A stretch of DNA of 64,000 nucleotides from Plotosus lineatus (Eukaryota > Chordata > Actinopteri > Siluriformes > Plotosidae). The notes below the pieces were generated by a model that did no database searches, was not told the DNA's origin, and worked only from the letters and a program-made list of their open reading frames with translations. Shown here piece by piece: positions 3,708 through 62,947 of the stretch. Within the stretch, counting starts at the first letter, position 1, and each line of letters starts with the position of its first letter. The DNA is taken from NCBI GenBank assembly GCA_024760905.1, contig CM045729.1, positions 59,180,580 through 59,244,579 of the forward strand, in the 5' to 3' direction. A program made the position numbers and the translations under genes.

Positions 3708-4884
3708 CTTCTTCTTCTTCTTCTTCTTCTTTTACTTTCGGCTGCTCCCTTCAGGGGTCGCCACAGCAAATCATCCGCCTCCACCTCACCCTGTCCTCTG
3801 CATCTTCTTTTCTGACTCCAACGACCTTCATGTCTTCCTTCACCACATCCATAAATCTCTTCTTTGGTCTTCCTCGAGGCCTTCTGCCTGGTAGTTCAAA
3901 CCTCAGCATCCTACTGCCAATATACTCACTATCCCTCCTCTGTACATGTCCAAACCATCTCAATCTAGCCTCTCTGACTTTGTCTCCAAAACATTTTACG
4001 TGGGCTGTCCCTCTGATATACTCATTTCTGATCCTATCCATCCTCGTTACTCCCGGAGAGAACCTCAACATTTTCATCTCCGCTACCTCCAGCTCTGCCT
4101 CCTGCCTTTTCCTCAGCGCCACTGTTTCTAAGCCATACAACATCGCTGGCCTCACCACCGTCTTGTACACTTTTCCCTTCATTCTTGCTGACACTCTCCT
4201 ATCGCACATCACACCGGACACTTTTCTCTAACCATTCCAGCCTGCCTGCACACGCTTCTTCACCTCTTTTCCACACTCTCCATTGCTCTGGATTGTTGAG
4301 CCTAAGTACTTAAAATCCTCCACCTTCGTTATCTCTGCTCCCTGTAACATCACCGTTCCTCCTGGGTCCTTCTCATTTACACACATGTATTCTGATTTTC
4401 TGAGGCTAACCTTCATTCCTCTCCTTTCCAGGGCATACCTCCACCTCTCTAGATTTTCTTGCACTTGTTCTCTGCTCTCACTACAGATCACAATGTCATC
4501 TGCAAACATCATAGTCCATGGAGATTCTTGTCTCACCTCGTCTGTCAGCCTGTCCATCACCATAGCAAACAAGAAGGGGCTCAGAGCTGACCCTTGATGC
4601 AGTCCCACCTCCACCTTGAATTCGTTGGTCACACCGACAGCACACCTCACCACTGTCTTACATCTCTCATACATGTCCTGCACCACTCTAACATACTTCT
4701 CTGCCACTCCAGACTTCCTCATGCAATACCACAGTTCTTCTCTTGGCACCCTGTCATATGCTTTTTCCAGATCCACAAAGGCACAATGTAGCTCCCTCTG
4801 ACCTTCTCTGTACTTCTCTATTAACATCCTCAAAGCAAACATTGCATCTGTGGTGCTCTTTCTTGGCATGAAACCAAACTGTTG
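3708..4884 (-). mobile_element. RTE-type LINE copy R1, 5'-truncated
   Basis: Minus-strand RTE (Expander-like) element keeping only the 3' part: reverse transcriptase to 3' end, with the characteristic 'ggggtcgccacag' and (TTC)n tail on the plus strand at 3708-3733. It is bounded by a perfect 18-bp direct repeat 'tcttccaaacctacagat' at 3690-3707 and 4885-4902, a clear target-site duplication. The 5' truncation falls within the 'QQFGFMPRK' region, as expected for incomplete reverse transcription. Confidence 0.92.
3751..4884 (-). pseudogene. RTE reverse transcriptase, 3' part, one stop
   Basis: Minus-strand reading frame for the C-terminal reverse-transcriptase region. The 'AFVDLEKAYDRVP' block and the catalytic 'MFADDIVI' block are present, followed by 'KYLGSTI', 'RLRWFGHVQRRD' and the RGRPKKR basic C-terminus, ending at the 'CCGDP' stop common to all copies. 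The frame is broken by a single TAG at 4228-4230 where other copies have TGG (W). Everything upstream of the palm is absent because of the 5' truncation. Confidence 0.88.
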
Positions 4885-4902
4885 TCTTCCAAACCTACAG
4901 AT

Positions 4903-13480: not shown

Positions 13481-14769
13481 GAATAAATAATGATGATTAA
13501 TAACATTATGGCTTTTGGTCAATTTGTGGTTGAATGGCTTTCTCTCTGAGGTTGAACTACACTTGGAACTAGACTCCAATATCAACTTGATTACATGTTC
13601 CTTGTCAGCATCTAAGTGCAATTGCTGTATTTGCTCATTCAAAAAAAAATGAACCAGAATATGGTTCCAATTCAGTAGAGTTCAATATGGTTTAAAAGTA
13701 ATTGATAGCTTGAGTAGGACAATATACATGCTTGGTGATCATTTGTATCTTCAGTTTCTTGATTGGATCCAAAAGGATTTAAATGGCCATTGTAATACAG
13801 TTTTCCAGTTAGGCATATAGAAAACTGTGGTTGGGTAACACGTGTATTGAACAAATACATGTAGATGAGAAATATGAAAGATTAATTGATAAGGCAGTAC
13901 TCACTTTTAATGAATGAGTTCATTATTTCAGTATTGTGTGTAATATAATCTAAATTTTTGCAGCATCTAAAAAGAGAGTAATTGCTATGCAACAGACTAT
14001 AATTCCTAAGCAAGTCAGCTGGAAAAAAAAAGTCAGTGCATAGTGACCTCCTCCTTATGCCATTTGTCATTGACCTACCATTACCATAGGTGAAATCTAA
14101 TGCATCTGGTGGTGTCACAACCACCTCTTTCCCTCCTCTTTATCAATTCTCCACTAGCTCTCTGCACTCCACTTGTCCAGCCTGTGACATTTGTGTCATT
14201 TTCTGCAGCTGTTGCTAATAACTGAGGTCACACACCTCACTGAGAAAGTCTAGACCCTGACATTTTCTCCACTTGCTGAAATATCCAATCTCTGCGTTTT
14301 CAGTAACATGCATGAAACCGCCTACATTATTAAGCAGCCACTTTCCTTTTGTTCGAAACATAACACTGACAGAAACTTATTTTCAATAAAAGAAGGGTTT
14401 GCTTTAAAAAACAAAACTACAGAGATTAAGGCAAAAGGAATGGGGATGGTGAAACAGTAGGAAAAAAATCATAATGATTATACAATCATTCAACTAATTG
14501 ATTAAGCAAAAAAATGGCATGACTAGAAATGAGAAACTTTTTTTTTCTAAGTACGTTATATTCGTGTTGATTCGGGCAGAGTATTCAATGTAATGATTTA
14601 ACTTTGTTGTAGTGTTACGACCTTCGGAAGCCAAGAGATAACATGCAGTACATCACTCTTCCCATTTCTCAAATTTTGGTCAGAGAAATTTCTAGCAGTA
14701 GTTTTATTAACCACTTGGGGAAAGAGCCATGTACAACATAGCAAACAAAATAGTAAACAAAGAACCATT
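13481..14769. other. unrecognised AT-rich DNA
   Basis: About 1.3 kb with short frames only (for example 13882-14124 minus and the start of 14598-14915 minus). No family similarity or structure was seen. Confidence 0.5.
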
Positions 14770-15026
14770 CTGTCTGTCTTCCTTTCGGCTTTTTCCCTTT
14801 TACTCGGGAGTCGCCACAGCGAATCATCTTGATTCGCACATTTTGATTTGGCAGAGGTTTTTACGTCGGATGCCCTTCCTGTCACAACCCTTTTTAGCAA
14901 GGGACAGAAACACACTGACGACTTTGCAGCCTACTCTTTACGAAAGTCAGCAATGGTTCTTTGACATGCCTCTCACCATAGAGAGACATGGCCCACCTTT
15001 GATAACCCAGTTAGCTGCACTGGGGG
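14770..15026 (-). mobile_element. tRNA SINE, head A with RTE tail, 5'-truncated
   Basis: The minus-strand copy ends (plus-strand left side) in 'ctgtctgtcttcctttcgg' and 'gggagtcgccacagcgaatc', the RTE-like tail, followed by the RTE-leader-like block with 'gtcggatgcccttcctgtca'. It stops at 'ttagctgcactggggg', so most of the tRNA head is missing. A possible short target repeat 'agtaaacaaa' is seen on both sides (about 14752 and 15028). Confidence 0.75.
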
Positions 15027-25286: not shown

Positions 25287-28200
25287 TCTTCTTCTTTTCC
25301 TTTCAGCTGTTCCCTTCAGGGCTCGCCACTGGGAATCATCTGCCTCCATCCCACCCTATTCTCTGCATCTTCTTCTCTTACACCAACTGCCTTCATGTCC
25401 TCCTTCACCACGTCCATGAATCGCCTCTTTGGTTGTCCTCTAGGCCTTCTGCCTTGTAGTTCCAACTTCAGCATCTCACTACCAATATACTCACGATCCC
25501 TCCTCTGTACATGTCCAAACCATCTCAATCTTGCCTCTCTGACTTTGTCTCCAATACGTCTTACATGTGCTGTCCCTCTGATGTGCTCATTCCTAATCCT
25601 ATCCATCCTCGTTACTCCCAAAAAGAACCTCAACATTTTCATCTCTGCTACCTCCAGCTCTCCCTCCTGTCTTTTCCCCAGGGCCACTGTTTCTAAACCA
25701 TACAACATCGCTGGCCTCAACACCGTCTTGTACACCTTTCCTTTCATTCTTGCCGATACCTTCCGATCACACATCACACCAGACATGTTTCTCCAACCAT
25801 TCCAACCTGCCTGCACACGCTTTTTCACCTCTTTTCCACACTCTCCATTTCTCCGGATTGTTGAGCCTAAGTACTTAAAATCCTCCACCATCCTTATCTC
25901 TGCTCCATGTAACCTCACCTTTCCTGTTGGGTCCTTGACATTCATACACATGTATTCTGTCTTACTGAGGCTAACCTTCACTCCTCTCCTTTCCAGGGCA
26001 TACCTCCACCACTCTAGATTATCCTGCACTTGTCCTCTGCTCTCACTGCAGATCACAATGTCATCTGCAAACATCATAGTCCATGGGAAATCCTGTTTAA
26101 CCTCATCTGTCAGCCTGTCCATCATCATATCAAACAAGAAGGGGCTCAGAGCTGACCCTTGATGCAGTCCTACCTCCACTTTGAACTCTTCTGTCACACC
26201 GACAGCACACCTCACCACTGTCTTACATCTCTTATACATGTCCTGAACCACTCTAACATACTTCTCTGCCACTCCAGACTTCCTCATGCAATATCACAGT
26301 TCCTCTCTCGGCACCCTGTCATATGCTTTCTCCAGATCCACAAAGGCACAATGCAGCTCCTTCTGACCTTCTCTGTACTTCTCTATTAACATCCTCAAGG
26401 CAAACACTGCATCTGTGGTGCTCTTTCTTGGCATGAAACAAAACTGTTGTTCACAAATGCTGACCTCTGCCCGTAGTCTAGCTTCCACTATTCTTTCCCA
26501 TAACTTCATCGTATGGCTCATCAACTTTATCCCTCTGTCATTGCCACAACTCTGCACGTCTCCCTTGTTCTTAAAAGTGGGCGCCATCACACTTCACCAT
26601 TCCTCTGGCATCCTCTCACTCTCTAAGACCTTGTTGAATATTCTTGTCAGGGAATCTGCTGCTACCTCTCCTAGACACTTCCATACCTCCACCGGTATGT
26701 CATCAGGACCAGCTGCATTTCCATTCTTCATCCTATTCAATGCCCTCCTCACTTCACCCTTCCTAATCTTTGCTACTTCCTGGTCCTCAACGGTCACCTC
26801 TTCTCTCTTTTTTCTCTCTCATTTTCCTCATTCAGCAGCTCTTCAAAGTACTCTTTCCATCTTCCCAGCACACTTTTGTCATCAGTCAATACATTTCCCT
26901 CTGTCCTTAATAACTCTAGCTTGCTGCACGTCCTTCCGATCTCTATTGCTCTGCTGTGCCAACCTGTATAAATCATTTTCTCCCTCTTTACTTTCCAACC
27001 GAGCATACAAGTCATCATATGCCCTCTGTTTGGCTTTGACACCGCTACCTTCACCTTACGCTGTGTCTTCCTGTACTGCTATTTACTCTCTTCGGTCCTC
27101 TCTATGTCCCACTTCTTCTTAGCTAACCTCTTCCCTTGTACACACTCCTGCACTTCCTCATTCCACCACCAAGTCTCCTTATCTACTCTCCTTCCGGATG
27201 ACACACCAAGTATTCTCATACCTGTCTCCCTGATCACATTATCTGTGGTTGTCCAGTCCTCTGGAAGCACTTCCTGACCACCCAAAGCCTGTTTCAACTC
27301 CTCCTTGAAGACAACCCGACACTCTTCCTTTTTCAGCTTCCACCACTTTGTCTTCTGCTCTGCCTTTTCCTTCTTCACCTTCCTCACCATCAACATCATC
27401 CTGCACACCACCATCCTATGCTGTTTGGCAACACTCTCACCCACTACTACTTTGCAGTCACTGACTTCCTTCAAATTACATCGCCTATACAAGATGTAGT
27501 CTACTTGTGTGCTCCTACCTCCGCTTTTATAAGTCATCCTATGCGCCTGTCTCTTCTGGAAGAAAGTATTTACCACAGACATTTCCATCCTTTTTGCAAA
27601 ATCTACCAACATCTGTCCTTCTGCGTTCCTGTCCTGGATACCAAACCTGCCCATCACTTCCTCGTACCCTCTGTTTCCTGCACCAACATGTCCATTGAAG
27701 TCTGCTCCAATGACCACTCTTTCACCTCTGGGGGTACTCTGCATCACTTCATCTAACTCACTCCAGAATCTCTCCTTCTCTTCTAGCTCATATCCTGCCT
27801 GTGGGGCATAAGCACTAACAACATTGAACATCATGCCTTCAATTTCTAACTTGAGACTCATCACTCTGTCTGACACTCTTTTGACTTCTCGAACATTCCT
27901 GACAAACTCCTCCTTCAAGATGACTCCTACTCAATCTCTCTTCCCATCCACACCATGAAAAAACAACTTAAACCCTGCTCCTAAGCTTCTAGCCTTGCTA
28001 CCTTTCCACCTGGCCTCCTGAACACACAGTATGTTCACTTTCCTCCTCTGCATCATGTCAGCCAGCTCTCTACCTTTTCCTCCCATAGTCCCAACATTCA
28101 AAGTCCCTACTTTCAGTCCTCCACTTATGCCTTTCCTCTTCTCCCTCTGCCTGCGGACATGCCTTCTGCCTCTCCTTCTTTGACGTCTTTGACCAACAGT

Positions 28201-28430
28201 AGTCCAATTTCCACCAGCACCCTGTTGGTTGACAGCACTGATGGCGGTTGTTGTTAACCCGGGCCTCGACCGATTCGGTATGAAATTTTTTGTTGTGACT
28301 CGCATATTATATTTGGCATTTGTTTTCCGCCAGATGCCCTTCCTGACGCAACCCTCTGCATTTATTCAGGCTTGGGACTGGCGTGAGGGGGAGACACTGG
28401 CTTGTGCCCCTCCCTCACGGCTGCATTGGC
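25287..28430 (-). mobile_element. RTE-type LINE copy R2, full length
   Basis: Minus strand, from the 5' leader (28430 downwards, with antisense 'gcagatgcccttcctgacgc'-like leader and 'cctcgaccgattcgg') to the 3' end 'ggctcgccac' and a short (TTC) tail at 25287. About 3.1 kb. No convincing target duplication was found. Coding sequence is broken in several places. Confidence 0.9.
25316..28305 (-). pseudogene. RTE endonuclease-reverse transcriptase ORF, copy R2
   Basis: The ATG at 28305 starts 'MRVTTKNFIPNRSRP', the same start context as copy R4. The endonuclease frame runs to 27931, with a stop (TGA for R or G) after 'DGKRD', resumes at 27918-27079 with 'SAYAPQ' and 'GADFNGHVG', then breaks near 27060, 26797, 26590 and 26290. 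Reverse-transcriptase blocks 'AFVDLEKAYDRVP' and 'MFADDIVI' are intact, the latter in the 323-codon segment 25316-26287. Lesions are a mix of stops and small indels, so this copy is older than R3. Confidence 0.88.
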
Positions 28431-28732
28431 TTACCTTGTTGTCTCATTGTCACAAATGTATTTTATTGTCCAAAAATAGTCTCATGTGATTAATTTTAGG
28501 CAGGGTTATGCAAAATGTGTATTTTTTTTATGACTTGGAAATTAGATAACTAATGTTGACAAAGCTCTGGCTCCAGTGATATAGAGACCAAATGGCTCAC
28601 TATACTCCAAAAGCACAAGATTGCCCGAGGGACACAATCGAAAGCCTTTCTATAAATTCACAAAATATATGTGGACACATTGGGCAAACTCCCATATTCC
28701 CTTCAGAATCCTATAGAGCATATAGAGTTGGT

Positions 28733-29769: not shown

Positions 29770-30033
29770 ACTGGACATGACTTCAAACTGGGCCTTAGGA
29801 TGTCCTGGTGCCAAGTGCACTCAATGACACCCTTATGTTCAGACTTGGTGTTTGTGATGGACAAGCCATGACGAGCACAGAAACCCAACAATGACGCCAA
29901 TTACACCCTTCCAGATCAGTCTCATGCCCACATGGGTGTTGAAGTCTCCAAGGGCAATAAAGGAGTGCCCAGGGTTAGTGCTCTCCAACACCTCCCTCCA
30001 CCACAAAAAGACTCCAAGAAGGGTGGGTACTAT

Positions 30034-33000
30034 CTTCTTCTTTTCCTTTCGGCTGTTCCCTTCAGGGGTCGCCACAGCAAATGATCTGCCTCCATCTCTC
30101 CCTGTCCTCTGCATCTTCTACTCTTACTCCAACGACCTTCATGTCCGCCTTCACCGCATCCATAAATCTTCTCTTTGGTCTTCCTCTGGGCCTTTTGCCT
30201 GGTAGTTCCAACCTCAGCATCCTACGACCAATATACTCACTATCCCTCCTCTGTACATGTCCAAACCATCTCAATCTAGCCTCTCTGACTTTGTCTCCAA
30301 AACATCTAACATGTGCTGTCCCTCTGATGTACTCATTTCTGATCCTATCCATCCTCGTTACTCCCAAAGAGAACCTCAACATTTTCATCTCTGCTACCTC
30401 CAACTCTGACTCCTGTCTTTTCCCCAGGGCCACTGTCTCTAAACCATACAACATTGCTGGCCTCACCACCGTCTTGTACACTTTTCCCTTCATTCTTGCC
30501 GATACTCTCCTATCACACATCACACCGGACACTTTTCTCCATCCATTCCAACCTGCCTGCACGCGCTTCTTCACCTCTTTTCCCCACTCTCCATTGCTCT
30601 GGATTGTTGAGCCTAAGTACTTAAAATCCTCCACCTTCTTTATCTCTGCCCCCTGTAACCTCAAAGTTCCTCTTGGGTCCTTGTCGTTCACACACATGTA
30701 TTCTGTCTTACTAAGACTAACCTTCAATCCCCTCCTTTCCAGGGCATACCTCCACCTCTCTAGATTTTCCTCCACTTGGTCTCTGCTCTCACTACAGATC
30801 ACGATGTCATCTGCAAACATCATAGTCCATGGAGATTCTTGTCTAACCTCGTCTGTTAGCCTGTCCATCACCATAGCAAACAAGAAGGGGCTGAGAGCTG
30901 ACCCTTGATGCAGTCCCACCTCCACCTTGAACTCTTCTGTCACACCAACAGCACACCTCACCACTGTCTTACATCTCTCATACATGTCCTGCACCACTCT
31001 AACATACTTCTCTGTCACTCCAGACTTCCTCATACAATACCACAGTTCTTCTCTCGGCACCCTGTCATAGGCTTTCTCCAGATCCACAAAGGCACAATGC
31101 AGCTCCCTCTGACCTTCTCTGTACTTCTCTATTAACATCCTCAAAGCAAACACTGCATCTGTGGTGCTCTTTCTGGGCATGAAACCAAACTGTTGTTCAC
31201 AAATGCTGACCTCTGCCCTTAGTCTTGCTTCCACTATTCTTTCCCATAGCTTCATTGTATGGCTCATCAACTTTATCCCTCTGTAGTTGCCACAACTCTG
31301 TACATCTCCCTTGTTCTTAAAAATGGGCACAAGCACACTTCTCCTCCATTCCTCTGGCATCTGCTCACTTTCTAAGACCTTGTTGAATATTCTTGTCAGA
31401 AAATCTACTGCTACCTCCCCTAGACACTTCCATACCTCAACTGGTATGTCTTCAGGGCCAACTGCCTTTCCACTCTTCATCCTCTTCAATGCCCTCCTCA
31501 CTTCTCCCTTACTAATCTTTGCTACTTCCTGCTCCTCAACGGTCACCCCTTCTACTCTTTTTTCTCTCTCATTTTCTTCATTCATCAGCTGTTCAAAGTA
31601 CTCTTTCCATCTTCCCAGCACACTTCTGTCATCAGTCAATACATTTCCCTCTCTGTCCTTTATCAATCTAACTTGCTGCATGTCTTTCCCATCTCTATTT
31701 CTCTGCTGTGCTAACCTGTATAGATCATTTTCTCCCTCCTTACTGTTCAACCTATCATACAAGTCATCATACGCCCTCTGTTTGGCCTTTGACACTGCTA
31801 CCTTCGCCTTACGCTGTGTCTCCCTGTACTCCTATTTACTCTCTTCGGTCCTGTCAATGTCCCACTTCTTCTTGGCTAACCTCTTCTTTTGTACACACTC
31901 CTGTACTTCCTCATTCCACCACCAAGTTTCCTTATCTACTTTCCTTCCAGAGGACACACCAAGTACTCTCCTACCGGTCTCCCTGATCACATTGGCTGTG
32001 GTTGTCCAGTCCTCTGGAAGCACTTCCTGACTACCCAAAGCCTGTTTCAACTCCTCCTTGAAGACAACACGACACTCTTCCTTTTTCAGCTTCCACCACT
32101 TTGTCTTCTGCTCTGCCTTTGCCTTTTTCACTTTTCTCACCTTCAGTATCATCCTGCACACCACCATCCTATGCTGTTTGGCAACACTCTCACCAACTAC
32201 TACTTTGCAGTCACTGACTTCCTTCAAATTACATCGCCTGCACAAGATGTAGTCTACCTGTGTGCTCTTACCTCCGCTTTCATAAGTCACCCTATGCTTC
32301 TGTTTCTTCTTGAAGAAAGTATTCACCACAGCCATTTCCATCCTTTTTGCAAAATCGATCAACATCTGTCCTTCTGTGTTCCTGTCCTGGATACCAAACC
32401 TGCCCATCACTTCCTCGTCCCCTCTGTTGCCTGCACCAACATGTCCATTGAAGTCTGCTCCAATGACCACTCTTTCACCTCTGGGGGTATTCTGCATCAC
32501 TTCATCTAAATCACTCCAGAATCTTGCCTTCTCTTCTAGCTTACATCCTGCCTGTGGGGCATAAGCACTAACAACATTGACCATCACGCCTTCAATTTCT
32601 AACTTGAGACTCATCACTCTGTCTGACACTCTTTTCACGTCTAGAACATTCCTGACAAACCCCTCCTTCAAGATGACTCCTACTCCATTTCTCTTCCCAT
32701 CCACACCATGATAAAACAGTTTAAACCCTGCTCCTAAGCTTCTAGTCTTTCTACCTTTCCACCTTGTCTCCTGAACACACAGTATGTCCACCTTCCTCCT
32801 CTGCATCATGTCAGCCAGCTCCCTATCTTTTCCTTGCATAGTTCCAACATTCAAAGTCCCTACTCTCAGTCCTAGGCTCACACATTTCCTCTTCTCTCTC
32901 TGCCTACGGACACGCCTCCCGCCTCTCCTTCTTCGACGTCTTCGACCAACAGTAGTCCAATTTCCATCAGCACCCTGTTGGTTGACAGCACTGATGGCGG

Positions 33001-33077
33001 TCGTTGTTAACCCGGGCCTCGACCGATCCGGTATGAATTTTGTTTTGATCATTTGCATTTTTTTTTAAATGTGGCAG
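30034..33077 (-). mobile_element. RTE-type LINE copy R3, nearly intact
   Basis: Minus-strand RTE inserted into the leader/endonuclease region of LINE P. The 3' end has 'ggggtcgccacag' and a short (TTC) tail at 30034. The 5' end near 33077 lacks the outermost leader present in R2 and R4. No clear target duplication was found. It is the best preserved RTE copy in the window. Confidence 0.92.
30062..33058 (-). pseudogene. RTE endonuclease-reverse transcriptase ORF with one stop, copy R3
   Basis: One frame of about 998 codons from ATG 33058 ('MQMIKTKFIP') to the stop at 30062. Residues 1-60 are basic. The endonuclease occupies about 66-330, with 'LNVGTM' (69-74), 'QETRWKG' (96-102), 'SAYAPQ' (164-169) and 'GADFNGHVG' (200-208). 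Then come the linker 'GRWKEYFE', reverse transcriptase with 'NYRGIKL', 'AFVDLEKAYDRV' and 'MFADDIVI', the thumb 'KYLGSTI' and a basic end. The only lesion is TAG at 31832-31834, where copy R5 has CAG (Gln): 'TEESK-stop-EYRET'. Encodes the machinery for target-primed reverse transcription. Confidence 0.93.
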
Positions 33078-36190: not shown

Positions 36191-36306
36191 GACACATGGT
36201 GATTTTGTGCCTTTTCATATCACATTGTTGTCCCCCTGTGTATCGTGTTTTATTTTGATATGAAACATTTTATAAAATGTTTTAAAATCAATAGTATAAC
36301 CTATGT

Positions 36307-36658
36307 CTGTCTGTCTTCCTTTCGGCTTTTTCCCTTTTACTCGGGAGTCGCCACAGCGAATCATTTGATTCGCACGTTTGATTTGGCAGAGGTTTTTACG
36401 TCGGATGCCCTTCCTGTCACAACCCTTTGAGCAAGGGACAGAAACACGCTGACGACTTTGCAGCTACTCTTTACGAATGTCAGCAATGGTTCTTTTACAT
36501 GCCTCTCACCATAGACAGTGAGAGACATGGCCCGCCTTTGATAACCCAGTTAGCTGCACTGGGGGGCAATGACAACCTTGTGGAGAGTGGGACTCGAACC
36601 CCCAACCTTTGGATCAGCGATCCAGCGCCCTATACCACTAGACCACCACTGCCCCCTT
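36307..36658 (-). mobile_element. tRNA SINE, head A with RTE tail, best full-length copy
   Basis: 352 bp with a perfect 17-bp target duplication 'aatagtataacctatgt' at 36290-36306 and 36659-36675. Minus-strand order: tRNA-like head with A box 'tggtctagtggtat' and B box 'gggttcgagtccc', a middle segment, 'gtcagcgtgtttctgtccc', a block 'aggaagggcatccgacgtaa' resembling the RTE 5' leader, then 'gattcgctgtggcgactccc' and 'gggaaaaagccgaaagga' resembling the RTE 3' end. The head provides an internal RNA polymerase III promoter in retroposons of this kind; it is not a tRNA gene. Confidence 0.9.
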
Positions 36659-36675
36659 AATAGTATAACCTATGT

Positions 36676-40254: not shown

Positions 40255-40456
40255 TCCATCTGTAGTCCCTAATTTAGAATGGCCAATTAACCTACAGTGC
40301 ATGTCTTTGAATTGTGGGAGGAAACCGGAGCACCCGGAGGAAACCCACACAAGCACGGGGAGAACATGCAAACTCCACACAGAAACGCCCAGGTCGGGAA
40401 TCGAACCCGGGCTTTCTTGCTGTGAGGCGGACGTGCTAACCACTACGCCACCGTGC
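40255..40456 (-). mobile_element. V-SINE-like tRNA SINE (head B), well conserved
   Basis: Antisense 'cgccaccgtgcc' end with 'gctaaccactacgcc' (A box) and 'gggaatcgaacccggg' (B box), then 'ctccacacagaaacgccc' and 'ggagcacccggaggaaaccc'. This is the least diverged copy of head B. The 3' tail after 'ggccaattaacctacagtgc' is not tail II. Confidence 0.75.
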
Positions 40457-41335
40457 CTCCTAATATAATATAAAAATATTATATGCCTCCTAAAAATATA
40501 ATATTATTTCCAAATTTAAATAGCTTTTCTGGTATCTGCTGATGCTGCATTTTACAATAGACACGTGCATCTCAGACCTGTTCCCGTTGTGTTACGATCT
40601 GCTTATTTAGAATCTATTACAGGCGACATATGGAACATACAATACACAGGCCATGCAGCAAACGAGTACAGCATTTTTTATTTACTTTTCCTTGAATAAC
40701 TAGTTTACCTTGGATTTCCCAGATAATCTCTCCTCTGATATAAAACAGGATTTTATCTTATCAACGAAACTCAGAAAGCTGACCTGGTCTGTTATGCGCG
40801 TCCAAAATAAATAATCCATTACTATATTTACTTAATAAAAACTTCCAACAGGTAATTACGCTCTGAGCTGATATGGAATGAATGAATCACAGAGGAAGGA
40901 GCAGGATTTTAGGCAGACATCCGCACACACAGATGCACTCATGTCCAAATAGTGCAGGCTGACATAGCGACTGTCCCATAAGCCAAAGCTGAGTAAACAA
41001 CTTATTCAAGCGGACAAAAACAGAGATACTCAAATGGAGATTAGATGTAAAATATTCAGAGAAAAAAGTGTACAGTCATTAAGACAGAAAGCACTTGGGG
41101 TTATTTTATTTACTTTGTAAGGACAGGTTAAATATAATACATGGAGCAGAACCAGTGCGTGGTCACAGATCCTCAGTGATTATCCCTATATTAAATATTT
41201 CGATGAGACTGAGTATTTTTTCGGCCAGCCAGAACTGAAAACAACTGGAAAAAAAAAGTTAGATTATTCTGTCTTATTTAACAGTGATGTCACTTACATG
41301 TGTGGAGTCCTATAGTAATACCGTCTCAGTAATTA
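40457..41335. other. unrecognised DNA
   Basis: A short 'taatataatataaaaatatt' palindromic AT stretch near 40460-40505 and otherwise nothing recognised. Confidence 0.45.
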
Positions 41336-44334: not shown

Positions 44335-47300
44335 TTCTTCGTCTTCTTCTTTTCCTTTTGGCTTTTCCCTTCTGGGGTCGCCACAGCAAAGCATCTGCCT
44401 TCATCTCACCTTATCCTTTGCATTTTCTTCTCTGACACCAACTGCCTTCATGTCCTCCTTCACCACATCCATGAATCGTCTCTTTGGTCTTCCTCTAGGC
44501 CTTCTGCCTGATAGTTCCAACCTCAGCATCCTACTACCAATATACTCACTATCCCTCCTCTGTTCATGTCCAAACCATCTCAATTTAGCCTCTCTGACTT
44601 TGTCTCCAAAATGTCTTACATGTGCTGTCCCTCTGATGTGCTCATTCCTGATCCTATCCATCCTCATTACTCCCAAAAAGAACCTCAACATTTTCATCCC
44701 CAGGGCCATTGTTTCTAAACCATACAACATCGCTGGCCTCAACACCGTCTTGTAAACTTTTCCTTTCATTCTTGCCGATACCCTGCTATCACACATCACT
44801 CCGGACACTTTTCTCCAACCATTCCAACCTTCCTGCACACGCCAGCTCTTTTCACCTCTTTTCCACACTCTCCACCTTCCTCATCTCTGCTCCCTGTAAC
44901 CTTACCGTTCCTGTTGGATCCTTGTCATTCATACGCATGTATTCTGTCTTGCTGCGGCTAACCTCCATTCCGCTCCTTTCCAGGGCATACCTCCACCTCT
45001 CTAGATATTCCTGCACTTGTTCTCTGCTCTCAATACAGATCACAATGTCATCTGCAAACATTATAGTCCATGGGGAATTTTGTATAACCTCGTCTGTCAG
45101 CCTGTCCATCACTATAGCGAACAAGAAGGGGCTCAGAGCTGACCCTTGATGCAGTTCTACCTCCACCTTGAACTCTTCTGTCACACCGTCAGCACACCTC
45201 ACCACAGTCTTACATCTCTTATACATGTCCTGCACTACTCAAACATACTTCTCTGCCACCCCAGACTTCCTCATGCAATACCACAGTTCCTCTCTCGGCA
45301 CCCTGTCATATGCTTTCTCCAGATCCACAAAGGCACAACGCAGCTCCTTCTGACCTTCTCTGTACTTCTCTATTAACATCCTCAAGGCAAACACTGCATC
45401 TGTGGTGTTCCTTCTTGGCATGAAACAAAACTGTTGTTCACAAATGCTGACCTCTGCCCTTAGTCTAGCTTCCACTATTCTTTCCCATAACTTCATCGTA
45501 TGGCTCATCAACTTTATCCCTCTGTAGTTGCCACAACTCTGCACGTCTTCCTTGTTCTTAAAAATGAGCACCAGCATACTTGTTCTCCATTCCTCTGGCA
45601 TCCTCTCACTCTCTAAGACCTTGTTGAATGTTCTTGTCAGAAAACCTACTGCTACCTCTCCTAGACACTTCCATACCTCCACCAGTATTTCATCAGGACC
45701 AACTACTTTTCCATTCTTCATCCTCTTCAATGCCCTCCTCACTTCACCCTTCCTAATCTTTGCTACTTCCTGGTCCTCAACGGTCACCCCGTCTACTCTT
45801 TTTTTCTCTTTCATTTTCCTCATTCAGCAGCTCTTCAAAGTACTCTTTCCATCTTCCCAGCACACTTCTGTCATCAGTCAATACATTTCCATCTCTGTCC
45901 TTTATCACTCTAACTTGCTGCACGTCTTTCCCATCTCTATTTCTCTGCTGTGCTAACCTGTATAAATCATTTTCTCCCTCCTTACTGTCCAACCTTTCAG
46001 ACAAGTCATCATACGCCCTCTGTTTGGCCTTTGACACTGCTACCTTCACCTTATTGCTCTGTCTCCCTGTACTCCTGTTTAGTCTCTTCGGTCCTCTCTA
46101 TGTCCCAGTTCTTCTTAGCTAACCTCTTCTTTTGTACACACTCCTGCACTTCCTCATTTCACCACCAAGTGTCCTTGTCTACTTTCCTTCCAGAGGACAC
46201 ACCATGTATTCTCATACCTGTCTCCCTGATCACATTTGCTGTGGTTGTCCAGTCATCTGGAAGCACTTCCTGAATACCCAAAGCCTGTTTCAACTCCTCC
46301 TTGAAGACAACATGACACTCTTTCTTTTTCAGCTTCCAACACTTTGTCTTCTGCTCTCCCTTTGCCTTTTTCACCTTCCTCACCATCAGCGTCATCCTGC
46401 ACACCACCATCCTATGCTGTTTGGCAACACTCTCACCCACTACTACTTTGCAGTCACTGACTTCCTTCAAATTACATCGCCTATACAAGATGTAGTCTAC
46501 TTGTGTGCTCCTACCTCCGCTTTTATAAGTCATCCTATGCGCCTGTCTCTTCTGGAAGAAAGTATTTACCACAGCCATTTCCATCCTTTTTGCAAAATCT
46601 ACCAACATCTGTCCTTCTGCGTTCCTGTCCTGGATACCAAACCTGCCCATCACTTCCTCGTACCCTCTGTTTCCTGCACCAACATGTCCATTGAAGTCTG
46701 CTCCAATGACCACTCTTTCACCTCTGGGGGTACTCTGCATCACTTCATCTAACTCACTCCAGAATCTCTCCTTCTCTTCTAGCTCATATCCTGCCTGTGG
46801 GGCATAAGCACTAACAATATTGAACATCATGCCTTCAATTTCTAACTTGAGACTCATCACTCTGTCTGACACTCTTTTCACTTCTCGAACATTCCTGACA
46901 AACTCCTCCTTCAAGATGACTCCTACTCCATTTCTCTTCCCATCCACACCATGAAAAAACAGCTTAAACCCTCCTCCTAAGCTTCTAGCCTTGCTACCTT
47001 TCCACCTGGTCTCCTTAACACAAAGTATGTTCACCTTCCTCCTCTGCATCATGTCAGCCAGCTCTCTACCTTTTCCTGCCATAGTTCCAACATTCAAAGT
47101 CCCTACTCTCAGTCCTAGACTCATGCCTTTCCTCTTCTCTCTCTGCCTACGGACACGCCTCCTGCCTCTCCTTCTTCGACCAACAGTAGTCCAATTTCCA
47201 GCAGCGCCCTGTTGGTTAACAGCACTGATGGCGGTCATTGTTAACCCGGGCCTCGACCGATCCGGTATGACATTCTTTGTTTTGACTCGCATTTTTTTTT

Positions 47301-47414
47301 TTGGCATTTGTTTTATGCCGGATGCCCTTCCTGACTCAACCTTCTGCATTTATCTGGGCTTGGGACTGGCATGAGGGAGAGACACTGGTTTGTGCCACCC
47401 CTCCACGGCTGCAT
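44335..47414 (-). mobile_element. RTE-type LINE copy R4, full length
   Basis: 3080 bp bounded by a perfect 18-bp target duplication 'tgatgaaggtatttaaac' at 44317-44334 and 47415-47432. This fixes the true ends of the family: the 5' end starts 'aatgcagccgtggaggggtg' on the minus strand and the 3' end is the (GAA)n-like tail. It interrupts the reverse-transcriptase region of LINE Z3. Confidence 0.95.
44401..47292 (-). pseudogene. RTE endonuclease-reverse transcriptase ORF, copy R4
   Basis: The ATG at 47292 gives 'MRVKTKNVIPDRSRP'. The endonuclease frame is open to 46159 with 'LNVGTM', 'SAYAPQ' and 'GADFNGHVG'; TGA replaces Trp after 'DTWW'. Downstream are frameshifts near 46070 and 45780, open reverse transcriptase at 45239-45823 and 44852-45235 with 'FVDLEKAYDRVP' and 'MFADDIVI', a stop where TVV-type sequence should continue at 45237, and small deletions near 44860 and 44700 (loss of the KRQE...AE segment). 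A final TGA near 44401 replaces Trp. Clearly dead despite intact ends. Confidence 0.9.
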
Positions 47415-47782
47415 TGATGAAGGTATTTAAACATCTTCTCAAATTCAAACAGGCATCCAGGTTTCCCCAGGATGATCTAAAGTGCGCTAAAGTTGACAGC
47501 ATTAAAGGCCTTGGTCAGCGATAATTGTTGTTCCATACACTCCTCCATAAGTTGGCATTCATGAAGATTATCCATAGTACTTCGTTCAACTCTGAAACCA
47601 CATTGGCTTCTGAGATGATTCATGGACAGATTGATATTGTTAGCTGATTCAACAGGACCTTGGAGAAGACTTCCCAACTGCCTATAGCAAACATATTCCA
47701 CTATGGTAAGCATAAACAGACTTGGAGCTCTTAAAAAAAAGACAGCAAACTGAATCGCCACGCTATACAATTAGAATAAGTA

Positions 47783-49965: not shown

Positions 49966-50170
49966 GTTATCAAAGGCTGGCCATGTCTCTCACTGTCTAT
50001 GGTGAGGCATGTAAAAGAACCATTGCAAAGCCGTCAGCGTGTTTCTCTCCCTTGCTAAAGGGTTGTGTCAAGAAGGGCATCCAACGTAAAATCCTATGTC
50101 AAATCAAATGTGTGAATCAGCTGTGGCGACCTCCTGAGAAAAGGGGAAAAGCCGAAAGGAAAAGAAGAGA
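49966..50170 (+). mobile_element. tRNA SINE, head A with RTE tail, 5'-truncated
   Basis: Starts inside the body at 'gttatcaaaggctggccatg'; later 'aagaagggcatccaacgtaa', 'cagctgtggcgacctcctga' and 'gaaaagccgaaaggaaaaga'. Its 3' end is the most RTE-like of the SINE copies, including a GAA-rich tail. Confidence 0.8.
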
Positions 50171-51411: not shown

Positions 51412-51505
51412 GTGGCAGGGTGGCATAGTGGTTAGAATGTCTGCCTAACAGCAAGAAGGTCCTATGTTTGAATCTTGGGCCCGGTGAGGAAGTTTTGTGT
51501 GAGTT
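51412..51505 (+). mobile_element. V-SINE-like head B fragment
   Basis: 'ggcagggtggcatagtggtt' (A box) with 'acagcaagaaggtcctatgt' and 'ttgaatcttggg' (weak B box); stops before the conserved centre. Confidence 0.55.
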
Positions 51506-51551
51506 TAGGTTATCTATCTGTTGATGTAGACTGTATTAAGGAAAATATTAC

Positions 51552-54500
51552 GAACCAGTGTCTCTCCCCCTTATGCCGGTACCAAGCCCGGATAAATGCA
51601 GAGGGTTGCGACAGGAAGGGCATTCGGCATAAAACTTCTGCCACATTTCTCATGCAAATGATCAAAACAAAATTTATACTGGATCGGTCGAGGCCTGGGT
51701 TAACAACGACCGCCATCAGTGCTGTCAACCAACAGGGTGCTGATGGAAATTGGACTACTGTTGGTCGAAGACGTTGAAGAAGGAGAGGTGGGAGGCGTGT
51801 CCGTAGGCAGAGAGAGAAGAGGAAAGGCATGAGTCTAGGACTGAGAGTGGGGACTTTGAATGTAGGAACTATGCAAAGAAAAGGTAGAGAGCTGGCTGAC
51901 ATGATGCAGAGGAGGAAGGTGAACATACTGTGTGTTCAGGAGACCAGGTGGAAAGGTAGCAAAGCTAAAAGCTTAGGAGCAGGGTTTAAGCTGTTTTATC
52001 ACGGTGTGGATGGGAAGAGAAATGGAGTAGGAGTCATCTTGAAGGAGGGGTTTGTCAGGAATGTTCGAGAAGTGAAAAGAGTGTCAGACAGAGTGATGAG
52101 TCTCAAGTAAGAAATTGAAGGCGTGATGGTCAATGTTGTTAGTGCTTATGCCCCACAGGCAGGATGTGAGCTAGAAGAGAAGGAGAGATTCTGGAGTGAC
52201 TTAGATGAAGTGATGCAGAGTACCCCCAGAGGTGTGGGGCAGAGTTCAATGGACATGTTGGTGCAGGAAACAGAGGGGACGAGGAAGTGATGGGCAGGTT
52301 TGGTATCCAGGACAGGAACACAGAAGGACAGATGTTGATCGATTTTGCAAAAAGGATGGGAATGGCTGTGGTTAATACTTTCTTCGAGAAGAAACAGGAT
52401 CATAGGGTGACTTATGAAAGCGGAGGTAAGAGCACACAGGTAGACTACATCTTGTGTAGGCGATGTAATTTGAAGGAAGTCAGTGACTGCGAAGTAGTAG
52501 TGGGTGAGAGTCTTGCCGAACAGCATTGGATGGTGTTGTTCAGGATGACGCTGATGGTGAGGAAGGTGAAAAAGGCAAAGGGAGAGCAGAAGACAAAGTG
52601 TTGGAAGCTGAAAAAGAAAGAGTGTCATGTTGTCTTCAAGGAGGAGTTGAAACAGGCTTTGGGTATTCAGGAAGTGCTTCCAGATGACTGGACAACCACA
52701 GCCAATATGATCAGGGAGACCGGCAGGAGAGTACATGGTGTGTCCTCTGGAAGGAAAGTAGACAAGGACACTTGGTGGTGAAATGAGGAAGTGCAGGAGT
52801 GTGTACAAAAGAAGAGGTTAGCTTAGAAGAACTGGGACATAGAGAGGACCGAAGAGAGTAAACAGGAGTACAGGGAGACAGAGCAATAAGGTGAAGGTAG
52901 CAGTGTCAAAGGCCAAACAGAGGGCGTATGATGACTTGTCTGAAAGGTTGGACAGTAAGGAGGGAGAAAATGATTTATACAGGTTAGCACAGCAGAGAAA
53001 TAGAGATGGGAAAGACGTGCAGCAAGTTAGAGTGATAAAGGACAGAGATGGAAATGTATTGACTGATGACAGAAGTATGCTGGGAAGATGGAAAGAGTAC
53101 TTTGAAGAGCTGATGGATGAGGAAAATGAGAGAGAAAAAAGAGTAGAAGGGGTGACCGTTGAGGACCATTAAGTAGCAAAGATTAGTAAGGGTGAAGTGA
53201 GGAGGGCATTGAAGAGGATGAAGACTGGAAAGGCAGTTGGTCCTGATGACATACCAGTTGAGGTATGGAAGTGTCTAGGGGAGGAAGCAGTAGATTTTCT
53301 GACAAGAATATTCAAGAAGGTCTTAGAAAGTGAGCAGATGCCGGAGGAATGGAGGAGAAGTGTGCTGGTGCCCATTTTTAAGAACAAGGGAGATGTACAG
53401 AGTTGTGGCAACTACAGAGGGATAAAGTTGATGAGCCATACAATGAAGCTATGGGAAAGAATGGTGGAAGCTAGACTAAGGGCAGAGGTCAGCATTTGTG
53501 AACAACAGTTTGGTTTCATGCCAAGAAAGAGAACCACAGATGCAGTGTTTGCTTTGAGAATATTAATAGAGAAGTACAGAGAAGGTCAGAAGGAGCTGCA
53601 TTGTGCCTTTGTGGATCTGGAGAAAGCATATGACAGGGTGCCGAGAGAAGAACTGTGGTATTGTATGAGAAAGTCTGGAGTGGCAAAAAAGTATGTTAGA
53701 GTGGTGCAGGACATGTATGAGAGATGTAAGACAGTGGTGAGGTGTGCTGTCGGTGTGACAGACGAGTTCAAGGTGGAGGTGGGACTGCATCAAGGGTCAG
53801 CTCTCAGACCCTTCTTGTTTGCTATGGTGATGGACAGGCTGACAGACGAAGTTAGACAAGAATCTCCATGGACTATGATGTTTGCAGATGACATCGTGAT
53901 CTGTAGTGAGATCAGAGAACAAGTGGAGGAAAATGTAGTGAGGTAGAGGTATGCCATGGAAAGGAGGGGAATGAAGGTTACTCTCAGTAAGACAGAATAC
54001 ATGTGTGTGAACGACAAGGACCCAAGAGGAACGGTGAGGTTAAAGGAGGCAGAGATAAAGAAGGTGGAGGATTGTAAGTACTTAGGCTCAACAATCCAGA
54101 GCAATGGAGAGTGTGGAAAAGAGGTGAAGAAGCGCGTGCAGGCAGGTTAGAATGGTTGGAGAAAAGTGTCCGGTGTGACGTATGATAGGATGGTATCGGC
54201 AAGAATGAAAGGCAAAGTGTACAAGACAGTATTGAGGCCAGCGATGTTGTATGGCTTAGAAACAGTAGCCCTGGGGAAAAGACAGGAGTCAGAGTTGAAG
54301 GTAGCAGAGATGAAAATGTTGAGGTTCTCTTTGGGAGTAACGAGGATGGATAGGATCAGGAATGAGTACGTCAGAGGGACAGCACATGTTGGATGTTTTG
54401 GAGACAAAGTCAGAGAGGCTAGATTGAGATGGTTTGGACATGTACAGAGAAGGGATAGTGAGTATATTGGTAGTAGGATGCTGAGGTTGGAACTACCAGG

Positions 54501-54664
54501 CAGAAGGCCTAGAGAAAGACCAAAGAGAAGATTTATGGATGTGGTGAAGGTGGACATGAAGGTCGTTGGAGTAAGAGTAGAAGATGCAGAGGATAGGGTG
54601 AGATGGATGCAGATCATTTGCTGTGGCGACCCCTGAAGGGAACAGCAGAAAGGAAAAGAAGAAG
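51552..54664 (+). mobile_element. RTE-type LINE copy R5, nearly full length
   Basis: The only long RTE copy on the plus strand. It begins within the leader ('gaaccagtgtctctccccc'), about 30 bp short of the R4 5' end, and ends 'tgtggcgacccctgaaggga' plus a GAA tail, followed by an AT-rich tract. No clear target duplication. Confidence 0.92.
51652..54636 (+). pseudogene. RTE endonuclease-reverse transcriptase ORF, copy R5
   Basis: Starts 'MQMIKTKFILDRSRP'. Lesions seen: TGA after 'TVGRRR' (51776-51778), TAA after 'DRVMSLK', a small deletion at about 52235 that removes 'GERVVIGAD'-type sequence and hence part of the endonuclease active site, TGA after 'DKDTWW', a frameshift near 52880, TAA after 'TVEDH', TAG after 'EENVVR' (53944-53946) and TAG after 'RVQAG'. 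Reverse-transcriptase blocks 'FVDLEKAYDRVP' and 'MFADDIVI' remain. It carries CAG at the position of the R3 stop. Confidence 0.9.
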
Positions 54665-54880
54665 ATATGTATACAGTATATATATATATAAAACTGAACT
54701 GGGAAGAAGGAGGAGCATGTTTGTAAACAATGGACGCAGGGTCATTATGTCATTACGTCAGCGTACTACGTAAGTACATCTAAACTCAAAATTTGACTTT
54801 TTTTATGAAAAAAAAAAAAAAAAAAACGTAAAAGAGAAAAAAAAACATAAAACGAATGAACATAAGTCGGGGAATGTCTG
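54665..54880. repeat. partial MITE with 'cagacattccccgacttatg' end
   Basis: The right end at 54880 reads, on the minus strand, 'cagacattccccgacttatg', and is followed by TA. A similar end is found at 56789. The left end is not identifiable in the TA-rich sequence next to R5. Confidence 0.35.
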
Positions 54881-54898
54881 TATATATAAAGGAAAATG

Positions 54899-55212
54899 CG
54901 GGTAGTGGTGGTCGAGTGGTATAGAGAGCTGGATTGCTGATTCTAAAGTTGGTCGTTTGAGTTCCATTCTCCACAGGGTTGTCACTGTTCCCCCAGTGCA
55001 GCTAACTGGGTTATCAAAGGCCGGCCATGTCGCTCACTGTTTCTGGTGAGATGCATGTAAAAGAACCATTGCTGACTTTGGTAGAGAGTAGCTGCAAAGC
55101 CGTCAGCGTGTTTCTGTCCCTTGCTAAAAAAAGGGTTGTGTCAGGAAGGGCATCCGACGTAAAAACCTATGCCAAATCAAATGTGCGAATCATCTGGAAA
55201 AGGGAAAAAGCC
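54899..55212 (+). mobile_element. tRNA SINE, head A with shortened RTE tail
   Basis: 'ggtagtggtggtcgagtggt' (A box), 'gtttgagttcc' (B box), 'gtcagcgtgtttctgtccc', 'aggaagggcatccgacgtaa', then 'cgaatcatctggaaaaggga', in which the 'gattcgctgtggcgac' part of the tail is deleted. Approximate flanking repeat 'aaggaaaat' at about 54889 and 55228. Confidence 0.8.
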
Positions 55213-58364: not shown

Positions 58365-58714
58365 GGGCAGTTGTGGTCTAGTGGTATAGGGTGCTGGATC
58401 GCTGACCCAAAGGTTGGGGGTTTGAGTCCCACTCTCCACAAGGTTGTCACTGTCCCCTCCAGTGCAGCTAACTGGGTTATCAAAGGCAGGCCATGTTTTT
58501 CACTGTCTATGGTGAGAGGCATGTAAAAGAACCATTGCTGACATCCGTAAAGAGTAGCTGCAAAGTCGTCAGCGTGTTTCTGTCCCTTGCTAAAAGGGTT
58601 GTGACAGGAAGGGCATCCGACGTAAAAACCTCTGCCAAATCAAACGTGCGAATCAGATGATTCGCTGTGGTGACTCCCGAGTAAAAGGGAAAAAGCCGAA
58701 AGGAAGACAGACAG
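58365..58714 (+). mobile_element. tRNA SINE, head A with RTE tail, full length
   Basis: 'gggcagttgtggtctagtgg' (A box) and 'gggggtttgagtccc' (B box), the body, 'aggaagggcatccgacgtaa', 'gattcgctgtggtgactccc', 'gggaaaaagccgaaaggaag', ending 'acagacag'. A short repeat 'agcagt' on both sides may be part of its target duplication. It is inserted in the candidate minus-strand exon. Confidence 0.88.
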
Positions 58715-59880: not shown

Positions 59881-60373
59881 CTGGGGGATTCAGAGGGTTT
59901 TTCCCAGACTACCGTGAGGTAAACTCAACCTGAGACTGAAACTTACAGACAAAAAGACAGACGTCTTGGTTGTCTGATGAATGGCTAACTTCTTTTCCTT
60001 GCATGCCTGATTAATTGTGTGACAATTAATGGAAAATAAATGATACCTGCTTCTTCTCATTTGTTGTGAAAGGCTGTTATTTTGCTAAGTTTGATCTCTT
60101 GTTTGTTCAACTAATGATCAAACAACTTTGGATAACACCAAAACCCAGACAACCAGGGATACTGTCATTAGACTCAGAACACTATACATCACCAGTCATT
60201 ACCAATCTTCACCTGCTGTTTCTGATCCTCACAACATAGCAAAGCTATTTAACTATGTTCCATAATTATAATTTCGACCTTTACTGACTGAACTCAATAA
60301 ACTGTCATATTTACTTCCTTTACCTAACCTGGGTCATTCCAAATGTTTCTGGAACACATGTTAGTTTATCACA

Positions 60374-60524
60374 CCAAAGAGACGATTTATGGATGTGGTG
60401 AAGGAGGACATGAAGGTCGTTGGTGTAAGAGAAGAAGATGCAAAGGATAGGGTGAGATGGAGGGAGATGATTCGCTGTGGCGACCCCTGAAGGGAAAAGC
60501 CGAAAGGAAAAGAAGAAGAAGAAG
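60374..60524 (+). mobile_element. RTE 3'-end fragment R7 (151 bp)
   Basis: 'gacgatttatggatgtggtg', 'gatgattcgctgtggcgacc' and a (GAA)n tail. The 16-bp flanking repeat 'atgttrgtttatcaca' (one A/G difference) is at 60358-60373 and 60525-60540. It sits near the 3' edge of the LTR. Confidence 0.88.
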
Positions 60525-62590: not shown

Positions 62591-62947
62591 CATTCATTTA
62601 TTCATTTATTCATTTTCTGAACCGTTTAATCCTAATTAGGGTTGTACGGAGGCTGGTTCCCATTTCAGCGACTTTGGGCGAGGGTGGAGTACACCCTGGA
62701 CAGCTCGCCAGACCATCGCAGTGCAGAAACACGCTGACAGCTATACACCCTACTCGTGTCAAAAGTCAGCAATGGTTCTTTTACATGCCTCCACCATAGA
62801 TAGTGAGAGACCTGGCTGGGCGATAACCCAGTCAACTGCACAGTGACAACTGTGAGACAGCAGTGACAACCAATTGACAGTGGGGCTTGAATCCGCAACC
62901 TTAATATTGGTAATCCAGCACCTTAACACCAGGCCACCACTGCCCTG
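62591..62947 (-). mobile_element. tRNA SINE, head A with tail II, full length
   Basis: From the left: a CATT-rich tail, 'cctaattagggttgtacgga', 'cctggacagctcgccagacc', the head A body, and the antisense tRNA-like head ending 'caggccaccactgccc'. A 14-bp flanking repeat 'ttattatattcatt'/'ttataatattcatt' (one difference) is at 62577-62590 and 62948-62961. This is the best copy of the tail II version. Confidence 0.85.

What the first reader, a model, noticed from the sequence alone, without database searches (positions are those of the whole stretch)
36307..36658. tRNA SINE whose body joins the 5' leader and the 3' end of the local RTE LINE
In the SINE copies at 14.8, 36.3, 50.0, 54.9 and 58.4 kb the tRNA-like head is followed by 'aggaagggcatccgacgtaa', close to the RTE leader (51.6 and 47.3 kb: 'aggaagggcatccggcataa' type), and then by 'gattcgctgtggcgac' and 'gaaaagccgaaagga', which is the RTE 3' end (49.1, 54.6, 60.5 kb). 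The SINE therefore looks like a tRNA fused to an internally deleted RTE. Tail sharing between SINEs and partner LINEs is established (UnaSINE/UnaL2, Bov-tA/BovB). A SINE keeping both LINE termini is less usual, and the element looks like a parasite of this RTE.
Basis: partly seen in the sequence, partly recalled or inferred. Interest (0 to 1): 0.8.

Follow-up and report, generated by a model that had tools for sequence, protein, structure and literature searches.

The report
Fish SINE with two-part RTE tail
A short jumping element in a fish genome is a tRNA-like head and a shared middle joined to two pieces, one early and one final, of a longer local jumping element that probably copies it; this build is already known, but the two pieces look able to base-pair with each other, which suggests a testable reason why such parasites keep both.

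Summary
The element is exactly window 36307-36658 (minus strand), between 17-bp target-site duplications; 39 other copies scored at 95-98% identity. It is a tRNA-like head (anticodon position GCU), a body shared with a sister SINE that has an L2-type tail, 61 bp of an RTE LINE's 5' UTR, and the last ~57 bp of that RTE. Both RTE matches far exceed 500 shuffles (70 vs at most 28; 60 vs at most 26). Two corrections. The SINE does not keep both LINE termini: RTE copies start ~70 nt further upstream with a twister-ribozyme-like sequence that the SINE lacks. And the design is not unusual: RTE-derived 5' plus 3' pieces are published for bird, hagfish, ruminant and marsupial elements. So this is a new member of a known kind, probably copied by the RTE machinery. 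The exact donor was not found: three RTE subfamilies match at 76-90%, and the young SINE's (ACAG)n tail differs from the RTE's (AAG)n. Less expected: at the junction the SINE forms a hairpin from complementary parts of the RTE's two ends, and RTE subfamilies II and III keep this complementarity within single elements (type I only across copies). Suggestive, not proved.

The parts
36307..36658 (-). SINE insertion (the finding), full length
   Evidence: 39 other genome copies scored at 95-98%
36290..36306 (.). target-site duplication, copy 1 (17 bp)
36659..36675 (.). target-site duplication, copy 2 (17 bp)
36579..36652 (-). tRNA-like head, anticodon position GCU (serine-like by the genetic code)
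   Evidence: Rfam RF00005, 33.6 bits, gathering score 29; anticodon read by me from the alignment
36427..36578 (-). SINE body, shared with the L2-tailed sister SINE up to about SINE position 222-225
36366..36426 (-). segment derived from the RTE 5' UTR (RTE nt ~71-131), starting at the 3' edge of the twister-like module
   Evidence: score 70 vs shuffle max 28; coordinates
36307..36365 (-). segment derived from the RTE 3' end (last ORF2 codons, stop, short 3' UTR) plus (ACAG)n tail
   Evidence: score 60 vs shuffle max 26
36356..36373 (-). junction hairpin GCGAATCA/TGATTCGC formed by the two RTE-derived arms
   Evidence: Hairpin in the folded SINE consensus; coordinates
25287..28427 (-). RTE copy (type I-like, arms decayed), 5' end AATGCAGCC
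30031..33075 (-). RTE copy, type II, 5' truncated in the leader; 5' arm ~33047-33056, 3' arm ~30077-30086
44342..47415 (-). RTE copy (type I-like, arms decayed), 5' end AATGCAGCC
51550..54670 (+). RTE copy, type II; 5' arm 51654-51663, 3' arm 54612-54621 (10 bp complementary)
28348..28432 (-). twister-P1-like ribozyme at RTE 5' end
   Evidence: RF03160, 45.9 bits, E 5.6e-7, below gathering score 67.2
47336..47420 (-). twister-P1-like ribozyme at RTE 5' end
   Evidence: RF03160, 40.2 bits, E 2.4e-5, below gathering score
48989..49136 (+). 5'-truncated RTE 3' end with (AAG)n tail
60373..60519 (+). 5'-truncated RTE 3' end with (AAG)n tail
3722..4885 (-). RTE 3' part, type III 3' arm GATGATTTGC
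58365..58714 (+). second near-intact SINE copy, 96% identical
54900..55192 (+). older SINE copy lacking the gattcgctgtggcgac block
14769..15026 (-). partial SINE copy, 94%
49966..50161 (+). partial older SINE copy
62613..62945 (-). sister SINE: same head and body, L2-type tail

Best explanation
A SINE of a fish: tRNA-like head (anticodon position GCU), a ~150-bp body, and a bipartite tail made of an internal piece of an RTE LINE's 5' UTR (nt ~71-131) fused to that LINE's last ~57 nt. The RTE reverse transcriptase most likely recognises this tail and copies the SINE by target-primed reverse transcription. It probably arose when a head+body SINE that had an L2-type tail exchanged it for an internally deleted RTE. 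Shown: anatomy, uniform chimeric structure in many copies, TSDs, RTE matches beyond chance, and the sister SINE with the same head and body. Inferred: pol III transcription, trans-mobilisation by RTE, direction of the tail switch, and template switching or recombination as its mechanism.
For: 39 other copies scored at 95-98% identity (40 of 1819 candidates were scored). Non-simple direct repeats of 16-20 bp at the ends in 10 of 20 loci, the window's own included (no shuffled control). tRNA covariance match above the gathering score. Leader and tail matches of 70 and 60 against shuffle maxima of 28 and 26. Among the 120 listed relatives of the RTE ORF, many carry RT (PF00078) and some also endonuclease (PF03372), and those with an organism named are fishes. 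RTE is abundant: 13,309 exact hits to a 5'-leader pattern and 24,538 hits within 2 mismatches to a 3'-end pattern, reversed controls 0. The same body, with or without the head, runs into an L2-type tail in 24 places of 264 kb. Published precedents of the same build.
Against: No sampled RTE subfamily is a near-identical donor: leader 49-54 matches in 61-63 columns, tail 38-44 in 49-50 (subfamily strings put together by hand). All 20 best SINE copies end in GACAG-type repeats, whereas none of 19 RTE 3' ends printed has an ACAGACAG tail (one has a single GACAG after its AAG repeat). Of 23 SINE tails in 264 kb, 7 are ACAG, 6 AAG-like, 6 ATC-like and 4 other or broken. No experiment shows RTE moving it. 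The body was not compared with Repbase/Dfam.
Confidence: 0.92

Rival explanations
1. The RTE itself begins with a tRNA-like head, and the SINE is simply an internally deleted RTE including that head.
For: The 51.4-kb RTE copy is preceded by a tRNA-like sequence at ~51416-51480.
Against: Eight other RTE copies reach back to AATGCAGCC and have unrelated DNA directly before it (they were found by searching for that string). The tRNA-like piece at 51.4 kb also occurs at 40.4 and 63.8 kb, where no RTE match lies beside it.
Confidence: 0.02
2. Ordinary tail sharing: only the 3' end comes from RTE; the 'leader' similarity is chance or a shared low-complexity motif.
For: Shared 3' ends are the general SINE/LINE relation (PMC3747384, passages).
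Against: 61-column leader alignment with score 70 against a shuffle maximum of 28 and a reverse-complement control of 17.
Confidence: 0.02
3. The leader was first part of a SINE and was lent to the RTE, rather than the reverse.
For: Direction cannot be read from similarity alone; the SINE leader is about equally far from all three RTE subfamilies.
Against: In the RTE the leader lies between the twister-like module and the ORF in copies of all three types, while the L2-tailed sister SINE lacks it.
Confidence: 0.05

Closest known systems
AviRTE-mobilised SINEs of birds (ManaSINE1, GymnSINE, MeloSINE and others; PMC4844689, passages seen)
   Same: Promoter-bearing head plus bipartite tail from part of the RTE 5' UTR and the full 3' UTR; ManaSINE1 has a tRNA-Glu-derived promoter
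   Different: Different host, head and RTE; this SINE has an extra body shared with an L2-tailed sister; no sequence comparison made
Hagfish SINE2-9_EBu, SINE2-10_EBu, SINE2-1_EBu and SINE1-1_EBu (PMC7245038, passages and Discussion seen)
   Same: tRNA (or 7SL) head, body, RTE 5' UTR piece, RTE 3' end; ~17-bp TSDs; tail exchange between SINE families proposed
   Different: Their SINE2 bodies with RTE tails are UCON3; the body here was not tested; sequences not compared
Bov-tA / Bov-A2 with Bov-B (PMC3747384 Table 1, passage seen)
   Same: RTE-clade partner; Bov-A2 listed with a BovB 5'-end part; Bov-tA tRNA-headed
   Different: Ruminants, BovB; no sequence comparison made here
Twister ribozymes in RTE 5' ends (PMC7761336, passages seen; stated there as work in preparation)
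   Same: Twister-like motif at the RTE 5' end, proposed to process the 5' end
   Different: Here seen in fish RTE copies at scores below Rfam's gathering score; cleavage not tested

Membership tests
RTE-mobilised SINE with bipartite tail | 3' end homologous to an RTE LINE of the same genome | tested here: met
RTE-mobilised SINE with bipartite tail | Piece of the RTE 5' UTR joined upstream of the 3' piece | tested here: met
   RTE nt 71-131, two-base overlap (CA) at the junction
RTE-mobilised SINE with bipartite tail | Uniform chimeric structure in many copies | tested here: met
   40 of 40 scored matches, the window's included, cover at least query 14-347 of 359; 22 sequences aligned
RTE-mobilised SINE with bipartite tail | Same terminal simple repeat as the partner LINE | tested here: inconclusive
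   Young SINE (ACAG)n, RTE (AAG)n; 6 of 23 SINE tails in 264 kb are AAG-like
RTE-mobilised SINE with bipartite tail | Mobilisation by RTE protein | not testable with these tools
   Needs a cell assay
tRNA-derived SINE (SINE2) | tRNA-like 5' head able to fold as a cloverleaf | tested here: met
   RF00005 33.6 bits against 29; ARAGORN did not call it
tRNA-derived SINE (SINE2) | Pol III transcription | not testable with these tools
   No RNA data
tRNA-derived SINE (SINE2) | Target-site duplications | tested here: met
   17 bp at this copy; 10 of 20 loci with 16-20 bp non-simple repeats
RTE-clade LINE (partner) | Endonuclease and reverse transcriptase domains in one ORF, very short 3' UTR | tested here: met
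   Relatives with both PF03372 and PF00078; stop codon about 20 nt before the AAG repeat. Clade membership itself not tested by a tree
Twister ribozyme, type P1 (in the partner RTE) | Rfam RF03160 at or above gathering score | tested here: not met
   Best 56.4 bits against 67.2, though E 4e-10
Twister ribozyme, type P1 (in the partner RTE) | Self-cleavage activity | not testable with these tools
   Needs an in vitro assay; 5' ends lie at the expected position (the cleavage site is recalled)

The most novel reading that the evidence does not exclude
RTE LINE RNA holds its two ends together through a conserved long-range helix: 8-10 nt at the ORF2 start codon pair with the last ORF2 codons. Bipartite SINEs keep both RTE pieces because that helix, now a local hairpin at their junction, is part of what the RTE protein recognises, and the paired ends may also bring about the internal deletion. 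Support: the SINE junction forms GCGAATCA/TGATTCGC; arms of three RTE subfamilies fit (I GCGAATCA/TGATTCGC, II GCAAATGATC/GATCATTTGC, III GCAAATCA/TGATTTGC) while each of the six cross-combinations has a wobble or mismatch; I expected a type III 5' arm of GCAAATCATC from its 3' arm before fetching it (not logged beforehand) and its first 8 letters fitted. Against: type I's two arms were seen only in different copies; 6 of 14 linked elements have all 8 core pairs and two combine different types; permutation gives 0.059 or, with G-U, 0.025, uncorrected for relatedness; a whole fold of joined type II ends leaves its arms unpaired (0 of 10; type I consensus 8 of 8); fish RTE proteins with other N-termini exist.
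Probability: 0.22. Interest if true: 0.7.

Novelty: new member of a known kind. Interest (0 to 1): 0.4.

Why it matters
As a family it adds a fish example to a known design and shows one head and body carrying either an L2-type or an RTE tail, so tail exchange can be studied inside one genome. Its more useful point is a hypothesis: several RTE parasites keep a 5' piece as well as the 3' end, and the passages I read do not say why. If the two pieces form one RNA structure read by the RTE protein, mutating one arm and then the other would test it directly.

Tried and rejected
Rejected: an RTE with its own tRNA head. Rejected: chance leader match. Tried and empty: fish RTE relatives among viral contigs by protein and by leader pattern, and among GTDB genomes by pattern, so no second species at DNA level. 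Little use: a second protein search for N-terminal diversity listed almost only Hemibagrus, and its newly listed proteins were not examined further. Protein termini of the 120 relatives gave mixed support for conserved arms: MRI at the start with MIRC at the end in Hemibagrus and Oryzias latipes, but MSVH with MTRC in Phyllopteryx, MRLR with LIRC in Oryzias melastigma and MQIT with MIRC in Silurus. Three RTE 3' ends were extended upstream to find type III 5' ends; all were 5'-truncated. Of 8 places then tried for type III 5' ends, 4 gave one (L052, L053, L055, L058) and 4 did not (L051, L054, L056, L057). Duplex permutation on 8 elements: fraction 0.07. Type I consensus duplex is not significant on its own against shuffled arms (0.062), although its 8-nt exact complement was reached in only 11 of 1000 shuffles. 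Not done: Repbase/Dfam comparison; a systematic search for another LINE with a better tail; linking 5' and 3' arm types across the genome (searches unanswered).

Full report
What is there. Window 36307-36658 on the minus strand is one insertion between two 17-bp direct repeats at 36290-36306 and 36659-36675. The window lies in a 1.33-Gb genome of 30 contigs. Those relatives of the RTE ORF that carry an organism name are from fishes such as Hemibagrus, Lucifuga, Channa and Oryzias, so I take the host to be a fish; it was not identified further. A search with the element scored 40 of 1819 candidates; the 39 besides the window copy matched at 95-98%. Of 20 loci examined (the window's own included), 10 show non-simple end repeats of 16-20 bp, two show long AT-repeat matches, and eight show short ones or none; no shuffled control was run.

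Anatomy. The head scores 33.6 bits against Rfam tRNA (gathering score 29), and the aligned anticodon position reads GCU; ARAGORN did not call it. A body of about 150 bp follows. The next 61 columns align to nt 71-131 of the RTE 5' consensus (score 70; 500 shuffles mean 18, maximum 28), and the last part aligns to the RTE 3' consensus (score 60; maximum 26); the two share a CA at the junction. The RTE 3' piece holds the last ORF2 codons and the stop, because this RTE has only about 20 nt between its stop codon and its AAG repeat.

First, the SINE does not keep the RTE 5' terminus. Six of the 8 RTE 5' ends collected in 264 kb and two of seven further loci reach back to AATGCAGCC, about 70 nt before the shared block; directly before it stands unrelated DNA, with a C in five and a T in three of the eight (a search for that string). 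All eight of these match the type-P1 twister ribozyme, with E-values from 4e-10 (L045) to 2.4e-5 (window 47336-47420); two partial matches lie at 51552-51609 (E 0.077) and in L052; L053, L055 and L058, whose stretches start inside the motif, gave none. All scores are below the family's gathering score. From recall, twister cleaves just before the AA of this motif, which would make AATGCAGCC the processed end. A 2020 review already states that truncated but competent twister ribozymes are conserved at the 5' end of RTE elements (PMC7761336, passages). The SINE's RTE piece starts at the 3' edge of this module, so the ribozyme is absent and a tRNA-like head with body stands in its place. Second, the body also occurs with a different tail: in 24 places of the 264 kb examined, with or without the head, it runs into an L2-type tail ('L2-type' is recalled from fish repeats, not searched). 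For the RTE-tailed form I printed 23 places in the same stretch, two of them without the 3' block. The simplest history is an exchange of tail.

Partner. The RTE is abundant: 13,309 exact matches to a 35-place leader pattern and 24,538 matches within two mismatches to a 3'-end pattern, reversed controls zero. But no sampled subfamily is a perfect donor: over young and older SINE forms, leaders match at 49-54 of 61-63 columns and tails at 38-44 of 49-50, best for type III or I in the leader and type I in the tail. All 20 best SINE copies end in GACAG-type repeats, while none of 19 RTE ends printed has an ACAGACAG tail. Of 23 SINE tails in 264 kb, 7 are ACAG, 6 AAG-like, 6 ATC-like and 4 other or broken. 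So the RTE family is the likely partner, and the exact source element is unknown.

Known kind. [quoted passage not shown] Hagfish SINE2-9 and SINE2-10 have a body and both RTE parts, and bipartite non-autonomous elements are called common for RTE (PMC7245038, passages and Discussion). A review table lists Bov-A2, MAR4, RTESINE1 and RTE1-N1_LA with 5'-end parts of BovB or RTE (PMC3747384, passage). The finding is therefore a new member of a known kind.

The unexpected part. At the SINE junction, the leader's GCGAATCA and the tail's TGATTCGC are reverse complements, and folding the SINE consensus predicts a hairpin there. In the RTE these are the bases at the ORF start codon and in the last ORF codons. 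Type II has GCAAATGATC/GATCATTTGC within single elements (window 51654-51663 with 54612-54621; the 30-33 kb copy; L045; L048), type III has GCAAATCA/TGATTTGC within single elements (L055 with L062, L058 with L061), and type I has GCGAATCA/TGATTCGC, but its arms were seen only in different copies. Each of the six cross-combinations has a wobble or mismatch. Type III's 5' arm was fetched after its 3' arm was known, and fitted. Type II's 10-nt complement was reached in 0 of 1000 shuffles and type I's 8-nt in 11 of 1000. Against it: the change at position 3 could be independent CpG decay in both arms; of 14 elements with both ends, 6 have all 8 core pairs, and two (L040:6813-9969, and L052 with L059) combine ends of different types; permutation gives 0.059 for Watson-Crick and 0.025 with G-U, uncorrected for relatedness; when type II ends are joined by a spacer and folded whole, the arms do not pair (0 of 10), while type I consensus ends do (8 of 8). 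Among fish RTE proteins the terminal residues fit in some lineages and not in others. Two paper searches for RTE pairing of this kind and one for bipartite RTE SINEs listed nothing that, from titles and abstract starts, describes it; that is weak evidence of absence. I hold it as a testable idea at about 0.22.

Verdict. Interest 0.4, mainly for the pairing idea and the two-tailed sister families.

Noticed in passing
window 28348-28432, 47336-47420 (minus), 51552-51609 (plus, partial); L045, L040, L021, L031, L033, L048: Twister-P1-like ribozyme at the 5' end of fish RTE copies; RTE 5' boundaries coincide with the expected cleavage position.
   Followed up: partly
window 63064-63266: tRNA-Gly-like sequence (ARAGORN) followed by a weak UnaL2 LINE 3' element match (RF00436, E 0.02): possibly a different SINE with an L2 tail.
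   Followed up: no
window 51416-51480, also 40414-40457 and 63786-63836: Another tRNA-like repeat lying just upstream of the 51.5-kb RTE copy; could be mistaken for an RTE head.
   Followed up: partly
L033:9439-9754: An internally deleted RTE keeping 5' and 3' parts with a junction different from the SINE's: such deletion derivatives do arise.
   Followed up: partly
L040:6813-9969; L052 with L059: RTE copies (or, for the second, possibly neighbouring copies) with a 5' end of one subfamily and a 3' end of another.
   Followed up: partly
L051: A SINE tail directly followed by what reads as RTE ORF sequence: probably a SINE inserted within an RTE copy.
   Followed up: no
window 16781-17570 (minus) and 22934-23746 (plus): Open frames that by eye look like Tc1/mariner and pogo/Tigger transposases; not searched.
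   Followed up: no
window 8343-11137 (plus): Open frames that by eye look like another LINE; not searched.
   Followed up: no
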